This document shows, in pieces, positions 156 through 11,592 of a stretch of 36,161 bases of DNA (the first letter of the stretch is position 1; every line of letters starts with the position of its first letter). The notes under the pieces are model-generated. The model ran no database searches and was not told the origin of the DNA. It saw only the letters and a program-made list of their open reading frames with translations. Source of the DNA: Flavobacteriales bacterium (GTDB lineage Bacteria > Bacteroidota > Bacteroidia > Flavobacteriales > TMED113); contig PBKX01000020.1 in assembly GCA_002722215.1 (NCBI GenBank), positions 24,875 through 61,035 on the forward strand. The letters run 5' to 3'. Made by a program: the position numbers and the translations under genes.

Positions 156-299
156 ATGAAAGAAAAAAATTACCATATTATACTAATCCTAGGGCTGATT
201 ATTACAATTATTGGAATAATGACTAACAAATTTATTTTTTTACTACTATTATTCCCATTTGGTCTAAAAGTCTTTCAAGATGAATCACGTGATGATTAA
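156..299 (+). CDS. Small membrane protein, 47 aa, hypothetical
   Basis: An ATG at 156 opens a 47-codon frame ending in TAA at 297-299. The peptide starts with a charged segment (MKEKNYH), then has two hydrophobic stretches (about residues 8-22 and 26-37) separated by the short polar segment TNK, and ends in an acidic tail (QDESRDD). This is the layout of a small inner-membrane hairpin, and small hydrophobic peptides of this kind are common in Flavobacteriia. It ends 4 bases inside the convergent lipoprotein gene, matching the tight 3' overlaps elsewhere in the window. I do not recognise a named family, and no function can be given. Because the frame is short, chance cannot be excluded, although the topology and exact gene-end overlap argue for a real gene. 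Confidence 0.5.
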   Translation: MKEKNYHIILILGLIITIIGIMTNKFIFLLLLFPFGLKVFQDESRDD

Positions 300-1231
300 A
301 TTTGAATATTGAATACTGAGAGTAACCCTCTATGATCGGATTCGTAATTCTCAATAAGAATCGTAGATTGCGAGTCTGGACCAACAATATCTACAGACTC
401 AAGAGTAATTAAGTCATCCAAGGGATAATAATAAATAAAATCTATTCTATCATGAACTTCATTAAGAGTAGTATAAGGAGTCCAAGTATAACCCGGATGG
501 ACAATTGGATTATTATAAATATGTCTATATGAATCAATAAATCCTAAGTCATGAATTTTATTTGAAGTCGGCCAATCTACCGTGAAGTGAGATGAATCAA
601 TAGCAAAATATAATGGATTCTCTGCTCCAAAAATCCAATCTAAATGAGAAGGCTCATTAAAATCTCCTGTTAAAATAATAGGCATAGTACTTGTATTTTT
701 TACTTCTTCCACCAATGATATTAATGATAATAATTCCGCACTTCTTGTTTGGTTTGCTTGATATATAGCTTGTGATTCTGTTGTAATTAATAAATCCCGA
801 ATATCATATGGCTGGTATGGAAACGCAGTCAAATGCACATTAAAAAAATTCAAATAAATTGAGTCATTAAAGATAATCCTAGATTGCATATCATTAATAC
901 CTTCAATTGGATATTTCGATAAAATCGCAGTACTTGCATTGGAATTACCATAAAAACAATAATCAAATCTATCCGCTATTTCCAGGCCAATTTCATACGA
1001 CTCTTGCAAACCAATAATATCTGGATCAACAACATCAATAACATCAGAAATGCTATTAAGAGAGCTTGTAGATAATCTATTAAAAGATAATACAGAAATA
1101 GTATTACCTGGTATGAAATTGTCACATAGAGATAGATATATTTGTGAATCCAAATCCATTGAGATAGAGTTGTTTTTTTCACAAGAAAAAAGTAAAATTG
1201 AAAAAAATATAACGTATTTATACATACTCAT
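296..1231 (-). CDS. Endonuclease/exonuclease/phosphatase family lipoprotein
   Basis: A predicted lipoprotein (311 aa) with the DNase I-like metal-dependent phosphoesterase fold. The N-terminus is a lipoprotein signal: a hydrophobic stretch ending in the lipobox LLFSC, with Cys17 as the acylated residue. A second ATG at codon 3 (1225) is an equally good start. The fold's signature motifs appear in order: LQES (metal-binding Glu, about residue 75), GDFNEPSH (about 190-198), DRIDFIYYY (about 262-270) and SDHRGLLSVF near the C-terminus, which holds the catalytic His. Members of this superfamily cleave phosphodiesters in nucleic acids, inositol phosphates or sphingomyelin; the substrate cannot be read from sequence. 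Lipidation places it in the envelope, so extracellular or periplasmic DNA or phosphate scavenging is a fair inference but unproven. It stands alone on its strand, diverging from the methyltransferase gene. Confidence 0.85.
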   Translation of the reverse strand: MSMYKYVIFFSILLFSCEKNNSISMDLDSQIYLSLCDNFIPGNTISVLSFNRLSTSSLNSISDVIDVVDPDIIGLQESYEIGLEIADRFDYCFYGNSNASTAILSKYPIEGINDMQSRIIFNDSIYLNFFNVHLTAFPYQPYDIRDLLITTESQAIYQANQTRSAELLSLISLVEEVKNTSTMPIILTGDFNEPSHLDWIFGAENPLYFAIDSSHFTVDWPTSNKIHDLGFIDSYRHIYNNPIVHPGYTWTPYTTLNEVHDRIDFIYYYPLDDLITLESVDIVGPDSQSTILIENYESDHRGLLSVFNIQI

Positions 1232-1274: not shown

Positions 1275-2906
1275 ATGGAACAAACAGAAAAAAAACTAAT
1301 ATTCTTATCAAATTTATTTCAACACCTTGATGGAATTGTATTAATTCCTACCATATTGGAATTACAAACACATCAGATTCTAGATTATATTAAAAGTCAA
1401 AAAAAATGTGCTTTATCTGAATTAACACACAAATACCATGCAAATCCTGGATATCTGAATGTAGCATTGCGATTATTGTGTTCACAAGGCATTTTAACCC
1501 AAAAAATTGAGGAAGATGACATATTTTTTATTGACTCTATGTTGACAAATTGGATGTCCTTAAAAATAGAATCCAAATATCAGATGATTGAAGGATTATA
1601 TAGGAAGGAGATAAACTATAAAAGTATTATTACAGATACGAAAAACTCGAACATATCGGAGCCTCATTTATATGCTATACTAGAAAAGTACATAAAGTGG
1701 AAGAAACTAGATGATCAGAAAAACAAGTCAGAGGGAATGCCAATAAATGATAAATGGGCAAATTGGAGAATTCATATAGAGGGTGCTGTTCTAGGCCCCA
1801 TTATAGTGCTTTTATCTAGAAATAATGTATTTGATGGCATTGTCAAAGGCAGTACTATTGAAATACCAGGACATCCAAAATGGAAAGAAATATTAATGAA
1901 ATTATTTCTGAGTTGTAATATAATTAATGAAGATTCCGCATTAACTGAATACGGTTATTTCTTATTAAAACGGGCCACCTCGTATGGAGTTACAGTCTCT
2001 TATCTGCCGACATTTCAAAGTTTAAATCATTTAATCTACGGGAACCATCGCTTCCTAACCACTAAATCAAAAAAAGAAGCGGAAATACATGTAGATAGAG
2101 CAATGAATGTTTGGGGTAGCGGCGGTGCTCATAATACATATTTTAAAAAAGTAGATAAAATTATTTTAGATTTATTTAATCTCCCAATTGAAGAACAACC
2201 AAAAGGCTTTATAGATATTGGTTGTGGTAATGGTAAATTAATAGAGCATGTATTTGATTTAATCTATTACAAAACTAAAAGGGGGCAGTTATTGAAAGAA
2301 CACCCTTTATTTATTGTAGGCAGTGACTTTAATTATCAAGCACTAGAAGCGACAACTGAGACAATCAATAAAGCGGACATATGGGCAAAAACAGCATTTG
2401 GTGACATTAGTGATCCAGCATCTTTAGCAAAAAGGCTTAAGGAAGAACATAGTATCAATTTAGTTGATTTACTAAATGTGCGATCATTTTTAGATCATAA
2501 CCGAATATATGAATCCCCAAAAAAAGAAAATAAAGACAAGAGTGCATCTACTGGTGCATTTTGCTATCAAGGAAGTCGATTACAAAATAATGAAGTGGAA
2601 CAAAACTTAAAAGAACACTTACAAAAATGGCACCCATATTTAACAAAATATGGATTACTCATTGTAGAATTACATACTATAGATCCAGTGATATCAGCGA
2701 AAAATATTGGGAAAACTGCTATTACTGCATATGACGCGTCACATGGGTTTTCAGATCAATACATTATTGAATATAATTTGTTTTTAAAAAAAGCTCTTGA
2801 AATTGGATTAGTACCAGACTCTAGTCATGAATATACATTTCCTTCTAAAGAAATTCCAATTGTTAGTATTAATAGATTAATTGCTACAAATCCTAAATAT
2901 GATTAA
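1275..2906 (+). CDS. Class I SAM-dependent methyltransferase, PKS C-methyltransferase-like
   Basis: A protein of 543 aa from ATG 1275 (548 aa if TTG 1260 were used, which the overlapping promoter box makes unlikely). The N-terminal 290 residues look like a helical/winged-helix lid: two segments resemble wHTH folds (about 30-100 and 165-250), as in O-methyltransferase dimerisation regions. The SAM-binding motif I is FIDIGCGNGKLIE (D314, G316, G318, G320). Near the C-terminus is YDASHGFSDQ (H490 to Q495). From memory, this motif occurs in large methyltransferases related to the AprA and other trans-AT polyketide-synthase methylating domains, where His and Gln side chains bind a metal. Here the enzyme stands alone with no PKS or acyl carrier protein nearby, so its substrate is unknown. 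Its 3' end overlaps the convergent rluD by 14 bases. The methyltransferase call is firm; the PKS relationship is tentative. Confidence 0.8.
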   Translation: MEQTEKKLIFLSNLFQHLDGIVLIPTILELQTHQILDYIKSQKKCALSELTHKYHANPGYLNVALRLLCSQGILTQKIEEDDIFFIDSMLTNWMSLKIESKYQMIEGLYRKEINYKSIITDTKNSNISEPHLYAILEKYIKWKKLDDQKNKSEGMPINDKWANWRIHIEGAVLGPIIVLLSRNNVFDGIVKGSTIEIPGHPKWKEILMKLFLSCNIINEDSALTEYGYFLLKRATSYGVTVSYLPTFQSLNHLIYGNHRFLTTKSKKEAEIHVDRAMNVWGSGGAHNTYFKKVDKIILDLFNLPIEEQPKGFIDIGCGNGKLIEHVFDLIYYKTKRGQLLKEHPLFIVGSDFNYQALEATTETINKADIWAKTAFGDISDPASLAKRLKEEHSINLVDLLNVRSFLDHNRIYESPKKENKDKSASTGAFCYQGSRLQNNEVEQNLKEHLQKWHPYLTKYGLLIVELHTIDPVISAKNIGKTAITAYDASHGFSDQYIIEYNLFLKKALEIGLVPDSSHEYTFPSKEIPIVSINRLIATNPKYD

Positions 2907-3903
2907 TATAATTCCGCCAACGATTAATGACTGTTTGCATATCATCAGGAAGATTAGAGTGAAACATGACAAGTTGTTCATCTGCAGGATGTAAAAAACT
3001 TAACTCTGTAGCATGTAATGCTTGACGTGGTAGTATTTTAAAACAATTTTGAACAAATTGTTTATATTTTGAAAATGTTGTGCCTCTTAAAATATGATTA
3101 CCCCCATATTCAAAATCATTAAATAATGGATGGCCTATATGTTTCATATGTACACGTATTTGATGCGTCCTACCAGTTTCGAGTTTACATTTCACTAAAG
3201 TAACATATCGAAATCTTTCTACGACTTCATAATGTGTCACTGCATGCTTACCTTCTTCAGTGTTATCAAAAACTGTTATTAATTTTCTATTTTTTTTATT
3301 TCGCCCAATATTAGCTGTAATTGTACCTTGCTCTTCCTTCACATCACCCCAAACCAATGCTAAATATGTTCTACTAATTGTTCTCTCAGCAAATTGATTA
3401 GATAAATAACTTAATGCATTAGCATTTCTAGCAACAACCATCAAACCAGTCGTATTTTTATCTAACCGATGCACTAAACCAGGGCGTTGATTATCACTAG
3501 CATACTCAATGTCCTTAAATCTATATAAAAGAGCATGCACAAGAGTACCTGAATAATGACCATAACTAGGATGAACTACCATATTGCTAGATTTATTAAC
3601 AACAATAATATCATTATCTTCAAAAATAACATCAATCGGTATGTCTTCTGGAATAATCTCTTTATTATATGGCTCGTATTCAAACCGTATACTAATTTTA
3701 TCTAGAGGCTTTACTTTATAATTGGACTTGACTATTTTGTCATTACAAAAAACATTTCCTAATAATATTGATTTTTGTATTTTAGTTCTACTAGTATTCG
3801 GGATTCTAAGTAATAAAAATTTATCAATTCTTATTAAATCATGTTTTTTTTCTACTTCAAATGAATAATGTTCATATAATTCATCGTGATTAATTGGATC
3901 CAT
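2893..3903 (-). CDS. rluD: RluA-family 23S rRNA pseudouridine synthase (RluD-like)
   Basis: A protein of 336 aa that isomerises uridines to pseudouridine in rRNA. An S4 RNA-binding domain covers about residues 22-85 (RIDKFLLLRIPNTSRTKIQK), followed by the catalytic domain. The active-site motif HRLDKNTTGLMV carries the nucleophile Asp148, and the later GRTHQIRVHM motif is typical of the family. The S4 domain plus length suit RluD, which modifies helix 69 (positions 1911/1915/1917), but RluC-type specificity cannot be excluded by eye. It lies 6 bases downstream of the PASTA gene and should be co-transcribed with it from the promoter near 4690. The arrangement PASTA - rluD next to divergent ddl recurs in Flavobacteriia. 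RlmH, which methylates pseudouridine 1915 made by RluD, is encoded 3 kb away. Confidence 0.93.
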   Translation of the reverse strand: MDPINHDELYEHYSFEVEKKHDLIRIDKFLLLRIPNTSRTKIQKSILLGNVFCNDKIVKSNYKVKPLDKISIRFEYEPYNKEIIPEDIPIDVIFEDNDIIVVNKSSNMVVHPSYGHYSGTLVHALLYRFKDIEYASDNQRPGLVHRLDKNTTGLMVVARNANALSYLSNQFAERTISRTYLALVWGDVKEEQGTITANIGRNKKNRKLITVFDNTEEGKHAVTHYEVVERFRYVTLVKCKLETGRTHQIRVHMKHIGHPLFNDFEYGGNHILRGTTFSKYKQFVQNCFKILPRQALHATELSFLHPADEQLVMFHSNLPDDMQTVINRWRNYINHI

Positions 3904-5711: not shown

Positions 5712-6131
5712 ATGACTAGAATTAATCTTATCCCGACTCACGAATTAACTGATCAACATTTAATTGCAGAATACAGAGAAATTACTATGGTTCCTGCAGC
5801 ATTAAAACGGACGATACATAGTAAATCTGGCTTGATGTTAAATAAAATACCCGCAAGTTTTACATTAAACAAAGGACATGTACTTTTTTTTTATGATAAA
5901 GGCAAGTACTTATTCAAAAGATATCAATTACTAATACGTGAAATGGAAAACCGAGGATTTAAGCCAAATAAAAATAGAAAATTCCCATGTGACATTTTTA
6001 TTGAAAATAAATTATTCAATGATTGGGAACCAACATTAAAAGATTTAAAAATAATCCGGAATCGCATAAAATCTAAAATTAAACAAAAGCCAAATTGGTA
6101 TAGAAACAATGGGATTAAAATAAATAATTAA
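5712..6131 (+). CDS. Pyrimidine dimer DNA glycosylase (T4 endonuclease V family)
   Basis: A protein of 139 aa, almost the length of T4 DenV (138 aa). It removes the 5' base of UV-induced cyclobutane pyrimidine dimers and cleaves the abasic site. The N-terminus MTRINLIPTHELTDQHLIAE aligns with T4 endonuclease V without gaps: Thr2 (whose alpha-amino group is the nucleophile after Met removal), Arg3, Gln15, His16, Arg22 and catalytic Glu23 are all at the same positions. The C-terminal PNWYR corresponds to T4 PTWYK. T4 Arg26 is Met here, which I believe is common in the cellular REITMVPAALKR subfamily. It starts on the base after the ddl stop, so expression is probably coupled to a cell-wall gene rather than to an SOS unit. 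It suggests life in sunlit water; no photolyase is in this window. Confidence 0.93.
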   Translation: MTRINLIPTHELTDQHLIAEYREITMVPAALKRTIHSKSGLMLNKIPASFTLNKGHVLFFYDKGKYLFKRYQLLIREMENRGFKPNKNRKFPCDIFIENKLFNDWEPTLKDLKIIRNRIKSKIKQKPNWYRNNGIKINN

Positions 6132-8088: not shown

Positions 8089-11000
8089 ATGAAAAAAACA
8101 ATACTATTCATCTTTTTTGTTATCACAAATCTTATCTTTTCGCAAGACACATTGATTGATTCAGCACAAATCAAAAATGATCCAATTTTTTCCCAATCTG
8201 ATCTAGAGATGGAATTCAAAAATACTATAGACCCATATAATCCTTTATTGCCACCAAACACATATACAAATACTGATAACCCAAATTATTGGAAAAATAA
8301 AATGCCCCATCCAGGATATTGGCAACAAGATGTACATTATTCAATAAAAGCTGAGTTATTTGATTCAACAAACGTTATTGAAGGAACTCAAACATTGACC
8401 TATACTAACAACTCTCCAGATGATTTAGATCATGTATTTTTTCATCTATATGCAAATGCATTTCAACCAGATTCATATTTAGATAAATTTAAAAAAGCGA
8501 ATAAAGAACTCACGAGATACAGAAAAGATGAAAAACAAAAAAAAGGCATTAACATTATAAGTCTTGAAATAAATAATGAGACACCTAGAATAGAGGTTGA
8601 CAACACTATTATGAAAGTATTTCTAAATACTCCTATAAAAAGTGGAGAGACAGTAGTTTTTGACATCATATTCGAATCATCTTTTGGAGGGAATGAAGAG
8701 AGTGGCAATGTCAGAAGACGTATGAAAATGTACCAAGAATTTGGGAGCAAACATTATAATGGTGTCCATTGGTATCCTAGAATATCTGTATATGACAGGA
8801 AATTTGGGTGGACTACTGATCAACACCTAGGGAAAGAATTTTATGGTGACTTTGGGTGTTTTGATGTGGAATTAACAATGCCTGAAAACTATATTCTAGA
8901 GGCAACTGGCTATATGATTAATCGTGATGAAGTGCTACCAAAAGAATTAATGAAGAAATTGGATATAACAAACTTTAAGAGCAAAAAATACAATAGCCCT
9001 CCATCTACCATCATAAGATATAATCCAAACAAAAAGAAAACATGGAAATTTCATGCAGAAAATGTGCATGACTTTGCATTTACAGCGGATCCAAGCTATC
9101 GTATTGGTGTTGCAGAATGGAACGGAATAAAAGCTTATTCTTTAGCGCAAGAACAACATGCATCAAAATGGCAAAATGCTGCAGATTATGCTGCAGAGAT
9201 AATAGAAGTCTTTTCAAAAGATATTGGCATGTATACATACCATAAAATCATCGTCGCAGATGCAAGAAGTGGGATGGAATATCCAATGATTACACTCGAT
9301 AGTGGTAGAGATCCTGGATATAGAGGTCTACTAGTGCATGAAATTGCTCACATGTGGTTTTTTGGACAGGTTGGGACTAATGAAACATATAGAGCTGCAC
9401 TAGACGAGGGATTTACACAATTTTTAAGTGGATGGGGAGAAGAAGCAATCGAGGGCAAATATATGACTCGTGAACCTAAGTACATCACTGATAGTCTTTT
9501 AGATAACAAAATAGATGCAAGAAAAAAAGAATTATCTACAAAAAATTATTCAATAAAAAATTCTGATAATGCTTCATCAGAAAAAAACACCCAGCCAAGA
9601 GTGGGTGTGCTAGATAGATTAAGATGGTTAAAGCAAAACCAATCCCCTTTGAACAAGTATTATGATCAACATACAAATCAACGAAATACACGTGAGGGAA
9701 ATGCTTATTATAAATATATTCTAGATGCAACTGAAAATAATACTCCAGCACTGAACAGCCATTCTCATGACACTTATGCTTTTGGTGAAGATTTAGCACA
9801 CAGAGGTGGGTATACACATGTTTATTGGAAAACCGCTACAATGCTGTATAATTTACAATATGTGCTTGGTGATGAATTATTTTTAGCCGCTATGCAAAAT
9901 TATTTTGATACATGGAAAATGGCACATCCTTATTTAAATGATTTCAGAAACTCTTTTATTAGATTTACAAAAGTAGATCTAAATTGGTTCTTTGATCAAT
10001 GGCTAGAAACAAATAAAGATTTAGATTATGCGATTGGAAAAGTGAAAAAATTAGAAAATGACACATTTGAAATTAGTGTTCTAAGAAAAGGTGAGATGGA
10101 AATGCCTATTGACTTAACAATTGATTCCGAATTTGGACTTAGAAAACATTATCATATTCCAAATAAATGGTTTGTGAAAGAAGATAAAAATCGAGATTAT
10201 CTTTTGCCAAGATGGACAGGATATGGAGAATTAAATAGGGAATATAAATTTAAAGCACATGTGCCATCCGGGATCAAGAATATCATGATTGATTTAAGCG
10301 AACGACTTGCAGATTCATATGCAATTAATAATAACCAGAAAGGAAATATAGATTTTTCTATTGACTATGGGGTGAAAAAATGGCCAAATTTAAGGAAGTA
10401 TGAGGTGCAAGCTAGACCTGATTTTTGGTACAACTCATATGATGGGTTAAAAATAGGAACAAATCTTCAAGGAAATTATCTAAAGAAACATCACGTTTTT
10501 AGAGGAAACTTATGGGTAAACTCTGGTGTACTCCGAAACAATAGTATAAATGATAATGAAAATGATAAGCTATCATATAGATTAAACTACTCAACATCTA
10601 CATATAAATATGTGAAAAACAGTCGTGTTAGATTTGCATTAAGTGCGTTAGATGGGTTAAATTATTTATCCGTCGGTTTTAATTTAAAAGATGTAAGTCG
10701 CATGAATACTCTTGACATTTCTTTTAATAGTTTTGAAAGAAAAGAAACTTCCGATATCACCGGATATTTACTCAATCAAGAATATTGGGGTGGCGCAGGT
10801 ATGAAAAACACGAATATCTTAATTAATACTGGTCATCATTATCGTTACATTCAAGGAAATAAATTCAGTGGATCTGGAGACATTCAATTATCATTAAAGT
10901 CTTCTTCTATAATGAGTGATTATAATTTTTCCCAAATTTCCCTTTCTGCTATAAATAAAAATCGAGTAGGTAAAATTAAAATTAATACTAGATTCTTTGC

Positions 11001-11592
11001 ACAACGTGGATTTAATCATACTGGCTCTGAGTATTCTTTTCCATTTGAAAGCATGTTGTATGCGGCAGGAGGTAACCCAGAAGAAATGATGAGCAATAAA
11101 TATACAAGGTCAGCTGGCTTTATACCATATGACTGGGCTTCATATAGTACCAATATGACTAACACCTTACATTATGGAGGAGGATTAAATTTACGTGGAT
11201 ATGTTGGGTATAAAATGGGTGAATCTGCAAGTGACCTAATAAATGAGAATGAAGATTTTAATTTTTTATATAGAGGCACGTCAGGTATTGCTTTTAATAC
11301 AGAAATTGATTTCACAAATCATATCCCATACATGAATTATTTTGGCCTTAACTCATATATCTTCATGGATATGGGAGTGATTAACCAAAATAATCATGAC
11401 TTGTCATTCAGCAGTTTACACATGGATGCAGGAATAGGTTTTGCTTTAGAATTATCGAAATTGTGGAATAGTGTCATCGATGCAGAACCTTTGGTGTTAA
11501 GATTTGATTTACCTTTCTTCTTAAACAAGCCACCAGCAGATCAGAACTATATTGATTTTCGATTTGTCTTTGGTATAAATAGAGCCTTTTAA
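8089..11592 (+). CDS. M1-family metallopeptidase fused to C-terminal outer-membrane barrel
   Basis: A protein of 1167 aa, about twice the length of a usual bacterial M1 peptidase. A signal peptide (MKKTILFIFFVITNLIFSQ) is followed by the M1 N-terminal beta domain and the gluzincin catalytic domain. The zinc site is HEIAH (H417, E418, H421) with the third ligand E440 exactly 18 residues after the motif, in TNETYRAALDEGF. GMEYPMI (about 400) replaces the aminopeptidase GxMEN motif, and GGYTHVYWKTA holds the probable catalytic Tyr. An Ig-like domain (about 650-760) ends in LADSYAINNNQ. Residues about 770-1167 alternate polar and hydrophobic residues like beta strands, contain GGGLNLRGY (1030-1038), and end in RFDLPFF and FVFGINRAF with a terminal Phe, as in Omp85/surface-antigen barrels. 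I infer a peptidase anchored in, or exported through, its own barrel. The next gene starts 1 base later. Confidence 0.85.
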   Translation: MKKTILFIFFVITNLIFSQDTLIDSAQIKNDPIFSQSDLEMEFKNTIDPYNPLLPPNTYTNTDNPNYWKNKMPHPGYWQQDVHYSIKAELFDSTNVIEGTQTLTYTNNSPDDLDHVFFHLYANAFQPDSYLDKFKKANKELTRYRKDEKQKKGINIISLEINNETPRIEVDNTIMKVFLNTPIKSGETVVFDIIFESSFGGNEESGNVRRRMKMYQEFGSKHYNGVHWYPRISVYDRKFGWTTDQHLGKEFYGDFGCFDVELTMPENYILEATGYMINRDEVLPKELMKKLDITNFKSKKYNSPPSTIIRYNPNKKKTWKFHAENVHDFAFTADPSYRIGVAEWNGIKAYSLAQEQHASKWQNAADYAAEIIEVFSKDIGMYTYHKIIVADARSGMEYPMITLDSGRDPGYRGLLVHEIAHMWFFGQVGTNETYRAALDEGFTQFLSGWGEEAIEGKYMTREPKYITDSLLDNKIDARKKELSTKNYSIKNSDNASSEKNTQPRVGVLDRLRWLKQNQSPLNKYYDQHTNQRNTREGNAYYKYILDATENNTPALNSHSHDTYAFGEDLAHRGGYTHVYWKTATMLYNLQYVLGDELFLAAMQNYFDTWKMAHPYLNDFRNSFIRFTKVDLNWFFDQWLETNKDLDYAIGKVKKLENDTFEISVLRKGEMEMPIDLTIDSEFGLRKHYHIPNKWFVKEDKNRDYLLPRWTGYGELNREYKFKAHVPSGIKNIMIDLSERLADSYAINNNQKGNIDFSIDYGVKKWPNLRKYEVQARPDFWYNSYDGLKIGTNLQGNYLKKHHVFRGNLWVNSGVLRNNSINDNENDKLSYRLNYSTSTYKYVKNSRVRFALSALDGLNYLSVGFNLKDVSRMNTLDISFNSFERKETSDITGYLLNQEYWGGAGMKNTNILINTGHHYRYIQGNKFSGSGDIQLSLKSSSIMSDYNFSQISLSAINKNRVGKIKINTRFFAQRGFNHTGSEYSFPFESMLYAAGGNPEEMMSNKYTRSAGFIPYDWASYSTNMTNTLHYGGGLNLRGYVGYKMGESASDLINENEDFNFLYRGTSGIAFNTEIDFTNHIPYMNYFGLNSYIFMDMGVINQNNHDLSFSSLHMDAGIGFALELSKLWNSVIDAEPLVLRFDLPFFLNKPPADQNYIDFRFVFGINRAF

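What the first reader, a model, noticed from the sequence alone, without database searches (positions are those of the whole stretch)
1275..2906. Stand-alone methyltransferase resembling PKS C-methyltransferase domains
A 543-aa enzyme with a wHTH-like lid, a SAM motif and a C-terminal YDASHGFSDQ motif. I associate this motif with the AprA-type metal-dependent methylating domains of polyketide synthases. No PKS, acyl carrier or NRPS gene is nearby, so it may act on an acyl-CoA, acyl-ACP or free small molecule, a chemistry not usually assigned to core Bacteroidota genomes.
Basis: partly seen in the sequence, partly recalled or inferred. Interest (0 to 1): 0.5.

Follow-up and report, generated by a model that had tools for sequence, protein, structure and literature searches.

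The report
Stand-alone polyketide-type carbon methyltransferase
A bacterium with a very small genome and no polyketide machinery that we could find keeps an enzyme of the type that adds methyl groups to carbon in polyketide assembly lines; what it does there is unknown.

Summary
Window 1275-2906 (+) encodes a 543-aa protein with three Pfam AprA domains (Methyltransf_36 E 4.7e-102). Sequence and a confident AlphaFold2 model (mean pLDDT 87.2) place it nearest AprA MT1 and SxtA MT (Z 28.8-37.9; next chain 21.3). His490 and Gln495 are invariant in 113 of 113 rows and in 34 of 34 rows found without motif bias. Metal binding is untested.

No PKS, NRPS or carrier-protein family was found in the window. 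The own genome (81% complete) shows one carrier protein beside one ketosynthase over cut-off, as in a fatty-acid acpP-fabF pair. The gene is accessory, stands in or is missing from an exonuclease-rluD pair in its family, and is under purifying selection in relatives (dN/dS 0.05-0.13).

In 113 loci the gene next door stays within one taxonomic family. Two lineage-bound leads exist: a dehydrogenase E1 upstream (31 of 113) and overlap with bshB1 in one genus (5 of 5).

Best reading: metal/SAM C-methylation of a small chelating acyl substrate, malonyl-ACP being the first candidate. Substrate unproven.

The parts
1275..2906 (+). Stand-alone AprA-MT1-like SAM methyltransferase, 543 aa plus stop (TTG start at 1260 possible)
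1305..1502 (+). AprA_N N-terminal domain, aa 11-76
   Evidence: PF23526 E 8.9e-30
1779..2045 (+). WH_AprA winged-helix domain, aa 169-257
   Evidence: PF23589 E 3.3e-19
2082..2870 (+). Methyltransf_36 catalytic domain, aa 270-532
   Evidence: PF23525 E 4.7e-102
2103..2132 (+). MNVWGSGGAH, aa 277-286: stand-alone-family signature (W280 where AprA has V and SxtA has I)
2205..2234 (+). SAM motif I GFIDIGCGNG, aa 311-320
2481..2504 (+). RSFLDHNR, aa 403-410; D407 and H408 invariant; RSFLDHDR in AprA MT1 and SxtA
2667..2675 (+). E465-L-H467; EVH in AprA MT1 and SxtA; H467 invariant in the family
2730..2759 (+). YDASHGFSDQ, aa 486-495; H490 and Q495 candidate metal ligands
296..1231 (-). Divergent neighbour, Exo_endo_phos family
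   Evidence: one of the pair that the gene stands between
2893..3903 (-). Convergent neighbour, RluA-family pseudouridine synthase, overlapping the 3' end by 14 bases

Best explanation
It is a free-standing, SAM-dependent C-methyltransferase of the AprA MT1 / SxtA MT type. Inferred mechanism: a divalent metal (Fe or Mn), held by H490, Q495 and an upstream His/Asp, chelates a small acyl substrate with two oxygens, stabilises its enolate, and the carbon takes the methyl group from SAM. Because homologues act on malonyl-ACP, and because the own-genome search finds a single carrier protein beside a single ketosynthase, the first-choice substrate is malonyl-ACP (or malonyl-CoA) of fatty-acid synthesis, giving methylmalonyl or dimethylmalonyl thioester. 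Shown here: family, fold, conservation of the candidate ligands, purifying selection in relatives, absence of PKS genes in what could be searched. Inferred: metal binding, C-methylation, substrate, product.
For: Three Pfam AprA domains. PDB by sequence: only AprA MT1 and SxtA MT sequences, E 2e-63 to 2e-64 for the protein, 2.7e-100 to 6.4e-106 for a family profile. Model against PDB: SxtA/AprA MT1 entries Z 28.8-37.9 over 466-505 residues, next chain 21.3. H490 and Q495 invariant in 113 of 113 rows and in three distant outgroup sequences; 34 of 34 in the set not chosen by motif. AprA MT1 has H and Q at these places; the SxtA chains have Q and Q. PMC10784701 (passages) says iron-dependent SxtA methylates malonyl-ACP and AprA is the related dimethylating enzyme. 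Own genome: one PP-binding protein (81-aa frame), matched part 36 bases from that of the one ketosynthase over cut-off. dN/dS 0.046-0.130 in nine pairs of relatives.
Against: The pocket region differs from both characterised homologues at positions fixed or nearly fixed within the family: W280 (V/I), T/S489 (Y/F or engineered H), D494 (M/Q), V239 (T/I), so the substrate may differ. The GNAT domain that follows the MT in the AprA/SxtA structures is missing, so no built-in decarboxylation. The own genome is 81% complete, so another carrier protein could be missed. No fatty-acid-synthesis gene lies next to it in the window; accA is 28 kb away. Methylmalonyl-CoA mutase is present in the own genome, so methylmalonyl-CoA can arise otherwise.
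Confidence: 0.45

Rival explanations
1. A metal-dependent C-methyltransferase of a free 2-oxo acid, working like MppJ, MrsA or SgvM. The branched product could then feed a 2-oxo acid dehydrogenase, whose E1 gene precedes the methyltransferase in one clade.
For: The S. hygroscopicus enzyme (MppJ; name recalled), MrsA and SgvM are among the next structural matches (Z 15.7-21.3). NCBIfam 2-ketoarginine methyltransferase matches 15 of 21 family members weakly, best E 5.5e-6. A fused E1 (E1_dh + transketolase domains; 'branched-chain type' is my label) lies upstream on the same strand in 31 of 113 loci, gap 38-108 bp in 19 of the 31.
Against: The window protein itself has no NCBIfam match. Similarity to AprA MT1/SxtA is much stronger. 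Matches of similar Z include enzymes of other chemistry, such as AprA MT2 (18.8) and CurJ (18.4). E1 synteny is confined to one Flavobacteriaceae clade; the methyltransferase was within 1.5 kb downstream of E1 in 17 of the 30 best-matching E1 loci and not in 13, whereas a 945-aa gene stands beside E1 in 28 of 30. E1 is nearly universal (196 of 199 genomes).
Confidence: 0.25
2. It methylates bacillithiol or a precursor of it (for example at the malyl carbon), a second modification beside the known N-methylation by NmbA.
For: In 5 of 5 genomes of one genus (f104) bshB1 overlaps its start codon as TGATG or TAATG. BshC occurs in 30 of 30 methyltransferase-bearing genomes given, the window's own included (30 of 41 then known).
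Against: BshC is also in 38 of 43 genomes without the gene (hypergeometric about 0.06 by hand, not corrected for kinship; four small f16 genomes without the gene were left out of that call). BshB1 matched in no other of the contexts compared. NmbA, the known bacillithiol methyltransferase, is a different, 266-residue protein with a four-strand cap (PMC12719100).
Confidence: 0.12
3. An O-, N- or S-methyltransferase of some other small molecule that has kept the AprA scaffold but changed chemistry.
For: Family-specific pocket residues; patchy distribution; different immediate neighbours in each family.
Against: The candidate metal-site positions shared with AprA MT1 are invariant. The same pocket residues recur in 34 sequences of 11 families, which points to one conserved substrate.
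Confidence: 0.12
4. A decaying relic of a PKS module with no function.
For: No PKS nearby; clean absence in two relatives.
Against: dN/dS 0.046-0.130 in nine pairs; invariant candidate catalytic positions; full-length frames of 523-567 aa in 113 loci.
Confidence: 0.02

Closest known systems
AprA MT1 (apratoxin A; PDB 6b39, 6b3a, 6b3b, 7uch)
   Same: Same lid, winged-helix and MT region; His and Gln at the H490 and Q495 positions; RSFLDH and E-x-H motifs; model Z 28.8-32.2
   Different: AprA MT1 is solved with a following GNAT domain; Y instead of T/S489, V instead of W280, T instead of V239; here no GNAT, no carrier protein, no PKS
SxtA MT (PDB 7uci, 7ucl)
   Same: Same regions; highest Z, 36.7-37.9; malonyl-ACP methyltransferase according to PMC10784701 (passages)
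   Different: Q instead of H490, F (H in the F458H variant) instead of T/S489, I at the V239 position; solved with a decarboxylase domain
MppJ, MrsA, SgvM (2-oxo acid C-methyltransferases)
   Same: C-methylating enzymes with a related core fold; Zn in one SgvM entry title; metal use and the name MppJ recalled
   Different: 332-341 residues, aligned mostly from model residue 150 on, 9-17% identity, Z 15.7-21.3
NmbA (bacillithiol N-methyltransferase)
   Same: Class I methyltransferase that is patchy in Bacteroidota; possible pathway link through bshB1 in f104
   Different: 266 residues, four-strand cap (PMC12719100)

Membership tests
AprA MT1 / SxtA MT type metal-dependent C-methyltransferase | AprA_N, winged helix and Methyltransf_36 domains in this order | tested here: met
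   all over curated cut-off
AprA MT1 / SxtA MT type metal-dependent C-methyltransferase | Nearest solved folds are AprA MT1 and SxtA MT over most of the chain | tested here: met
   Z 28.8-37.9 over 466-505 residues, next 21.3
AprA MT1 / SxtA MT type metal-dependent C-methyltransferase | His/Gln candidate metal-ligand positions conserved in sequence | tested here: met
   H490 and Q495 113 of 113, 34 of 34; that these are the AprA ligands is recalled, not from a call
AprA MT1 / SxtA MT type metal-dependent C-methyltransferase | Ligands meet in space around a metal | not testable with these tools
   no model coordinates were in the Python box
AprA MT1 / SxtA MT type metal-dependent C-methyltransferase | SAM motif I | tested here: met
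   D314, G316, G318 113 of 113
AprA MT1 / SxtA MT type metal-dependent C-methyltransferase | Embedded in a PKS-like protein with GNAT and carrier protein | tested here: not met
   543-aa protein ends after the MT domain; no PKS context found. So it may work like an AprA MT but is not a PKS domain
AprA MT1 / SxtA MT type metal-dependent C-methyltransferase | C-methylation of malonyl-ACP with Fe or Mn | not testable with these tools
   needs purified enzyme
2-oxo acid C-methyltransferases (MppJ, MrsA, SgvM) | Sequence membership (TIGR04543 for 2-ketoarginine methyltransferase) | tested here: inconclusive
   15 of 21 relatives match weakly, the window protein does not
NmbA bacillithiol N-methyltransferase | About 266 residues, Rossmann core with four-strand cap | tested here: not met
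   543 aa with helical N-terminal part and winged helix against PMC12719100 section 2.3; no NmbA sequence was compared
Bacillithiol pathway enzyme | Occurs only with bsh genes | tested here: inconclusive
   BshC 30 of 30 with the gene, 38 of 43 without

The most novel reading that the evidence does not exclude
A PKS-type carbon methyltransferase has been recruited into primary metabolism: in genomes without polyketide synthases it methylates the malonyl group on the fatty-acid carrier protein, giving methyl- or dimethyl-malonyl units and hence methyl-branched or iso-type lipids without branched-chain amino acids.
Probability: 0.25. Interest if true: 0.7.

Novelty: new variant of a known kind. 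Interest (0 to 1): 0.42.

Why it matters
Metal-dependent C-methylation of acyl groups is known to me mainly from assembly lines. A free enzyme of this type, found in several families of Bacteroidota and kept even by a 1.4-Mb genome whose only detected carrier protein looks like that of fatty-acid synthesis, would extend that chemistry to ordinary metabolism and give a small C-methylation catalyst. A family with fixed pocket residues (W280, T/S489, D494) makes the substrate question directly testable in culturable Flavobacterium species.

Tried and rejected
1. Conserved partner genes. Neighbours were clustered in 23 contexts, 80 named loci and 113 together; immediate neighbours were checked. 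Each family has its own neighbourhood. Within 6 kb, two clusters join different families (clusters 10 and 89) and one listed (cluster 43) joins f1 with Flavobacterium loci, but at inconsistent distances or strands. An apparent shared GTPase cluster was three different GTPases (MnmE, Der, Era). The E1 link was tested on 30 E1 loci and is not specific. An earlier count said 18 and 12; the count is 17 and 13. Those loci show only 1.5 kb downstream, so a gene farther off would be missed; in 7 of the 13 the genes that otherwise follow the methyltransferase come instead.

2. Identity with NmbA. The bshB1 overlap suggested it; the papers show another family.

3. Co-occurrence with BshC: base rate too high to decide. 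Methylmalonyl-CoA mutase as a gap to be filled: it is present.

4. Relic: rejected by dN/dS.

5. Metal-site geometry: no coordinates in the box. Extent of methylation: PMC10784701 says an active-site Ile-to-Thr change let SxtA methylate twice; the matching column may be V239 (I in SxtA, T in AprA). This is my inference and gives no firm prediction.

6. Tree (50 rows, quick method): the stand-alone proteins fall together apart from three outgroups, but that root fork has support 75, the outgroup branches are very long and composition differs, so the root is unsafe. f104 (another class) and f3 g28 fall among other families, which suggests transfer.

7. Literature: searches showed no paper on a stand-alone member among the papers held, an open library only. 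Skiba 2017 and Lao 2022 are not held; what I say of AprA ligands is recalled. NmbA (9RI2) is not in the VIA listing; that excludes nothing.

Bias and dropped rows. The 80 loci were found with the motifs MNVWGSGG and [TS]FLDHNRI, so invariance there is partly by construction; the 34-row count is free of this. L049 (genome G179) was dropped from the 113 because my ORF picker missed the gene; its copy (L023) was added. L052, a partial copy, was left out.

Full report
What is there. The reading frame 1275-2906 (+) is real and encodes 543 residues. Pfam finds three AprA domains in it, 11-76, 169-257 and 270-532. NCBIfam has no model that matches it. The genome G000 has one copy.

Nearest known proteins. 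By sequence only AprA MT1 (6b39 and three more entries) and SxtA MT (7uci, 7ucl) match in the PDB, E 2e-64 to 2e-63, and 6.4e-106 to 2.7e-100 with a profile of 21 relatives. An AlphaFold2 model from that alignment has mean pLDDT 87.2 and pTM 0.88. Foldseek ranks seven AprA MT1/SxtA rows first, E 9.8e-32 to 9.8e-27; the eighth, MrsA, is at 6.6e-7. VIA gives Z 37.9 and 36.7 for SxtA (rmsd 2.8 and 2.6, 498 and 466 residues), 28.8-32.2 for AprA MT1, then 21.3 for the Streptomyces hygroscopicus enzyme (MppJ, name recalled); AprA MT2 comes at 18.8.

Candidate active site. In the alignments, H490 matches H in AprA and Q in SxtA; Q495 matches Q in both; H467 matches H in both; RSFLDHNR matches RSFLDHDR in both. 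H467, H490, Q495, R403, D407 and H408 are the same in 113 of 113 rows and 34 of 34 of the unbiased set. Three distant sequences (a Janthinobacterium PKS, a Streptantibioticus and a Burkholderia protein) keep H490 and Q495 but differ elsewhere: the first has F for H467, the second Q for H408, the third V for D407. Whether these residues hold a metal I could not test. Family-specific residues differ from the PKS enzymes: W280, V239, T/S489, D494. A pocket this constant suggests one common substrate; that is inference.

Distribution. 13 of 60 genomes, own included: 6 of 12 in the window's family f1 and 4 of 4 in f15; 12 of 395 in the class over cut-off; 27 of 395 in the phylum. In the 113 loci compared, the frames are 523-567 residues long.

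Gain and loss. In f1 the gene stands, opposite in direction, between an exonuclease-family gene and rluD (window; L030-L034). In two f1 genomes without it, G005 and G003, the two neighbours are adjacent, with 73 and 330 bases between their matched parts. Near E1 in Flavobacteriaceae it is likewise present or absent: within 1.5 kb downstream of E1 in 17 of 30 loci, not in 13; in 7 of these 13 DoxX, holA or small genes that otherwise follow the methyltransferase come within that 1.5 kb. It is thus an accessory gene. In nine pairs of relatives dN/dS is 0.046-0.130, so it works where it is kept; the window's own copy was not among those pairs.

Genome setting. The own genome (1.43 Mb, 81% complete) shows one PP-binding protein (81-aa frame) and one ketosynthase over cut-off (418-aa frame), matched parts 36 bases apart on one contig. 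A second ketosynthase hit is below cut-off. If the enzyme acts on a carrier-bound substrate, the candidate is the fatty-acid carrier protein, unless a second one lies in the missing part.

Leads on function. (a) A fused E1 dehydrogenase upstream in 31 of 113 loci, and directly next door in 21, shown above to be unspecific synteny. (b) In genus g440 of family f104, another class, bshB1 (TIGR04001, 270 bits) overlaps the start codon in 5 of 5 genomes. (c) In G839 S-adenosylhomocysteine hydrolase, a SAM-cycle gene, lies about 204 bases upstream on the same strand. Each is confined to one lineage.

Papers. PMC10784701: passages. PMC12719100: abstract, sections 2.1, 2.4, 4.1 and the first part of 2.3. 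PMC6282198: passages. PMC9838390, PMC10127204, PMC10673588: passages. PMC6336425: search listing only. Skiba 2017 and Lao 2022: not held, recalled only, titles seen in a reference list.

Verdict. A stand-alone branch of the AprA/SxtA methyltransferases for which I found no characterised member: same fold and same candidate metal positions, different architecture and pocket. I hold the class at about 0.9, C-methylation at about 0.75, malonyl-ACP or -CoA as substrate at about 0.35-0.4.

Noticed in passing
L203-L207 (f104 genomes), e.g. L203:9692-12051: The bshB1 stop codon overlaps the methyltransferase start (TGATG/TAATG) in 5 of 5 genomes of one genus, suggesting translational coupling with a bacillithiol gene.
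   Followed up: partly
L087:4515-9916 and further loci: A 945-aa protein without a Pfam match (L124 copy) or NCBIfam match (L087 copy) stands next to the fused E1 dehydrogenase gene in 28 of 30 Flavobacteriaceae E1 loci.
   Followed up: no
window 5712-6131: A pyrimidine-dimer glycosylase family gene (Pyr_excise) lies between ddl and the Ham1 gene; it is absent from the same spot in the related loci L030-L034.
   Followed up: no
L208:1140-4291: In genome G839 the methyltransferase follows an S-adenosylhomocysteine hydrolase gene on the same strand, about 204 bases apart.
   Followed up: no
L145:1-11443: On a Burkholderia stagnalis plasmid a distant relative, annotated as a hypothetical protein (CDS 9302-11443), lies in a cluster with two ketoacyl-ACP synthase III proteins and AMP-binding proteins.
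   Followed up: no
G000: No full-length fused E1 was found in the window's genome, unlike its two genus mates; it may lie in the missing part of the assembly.
   Followed up: no
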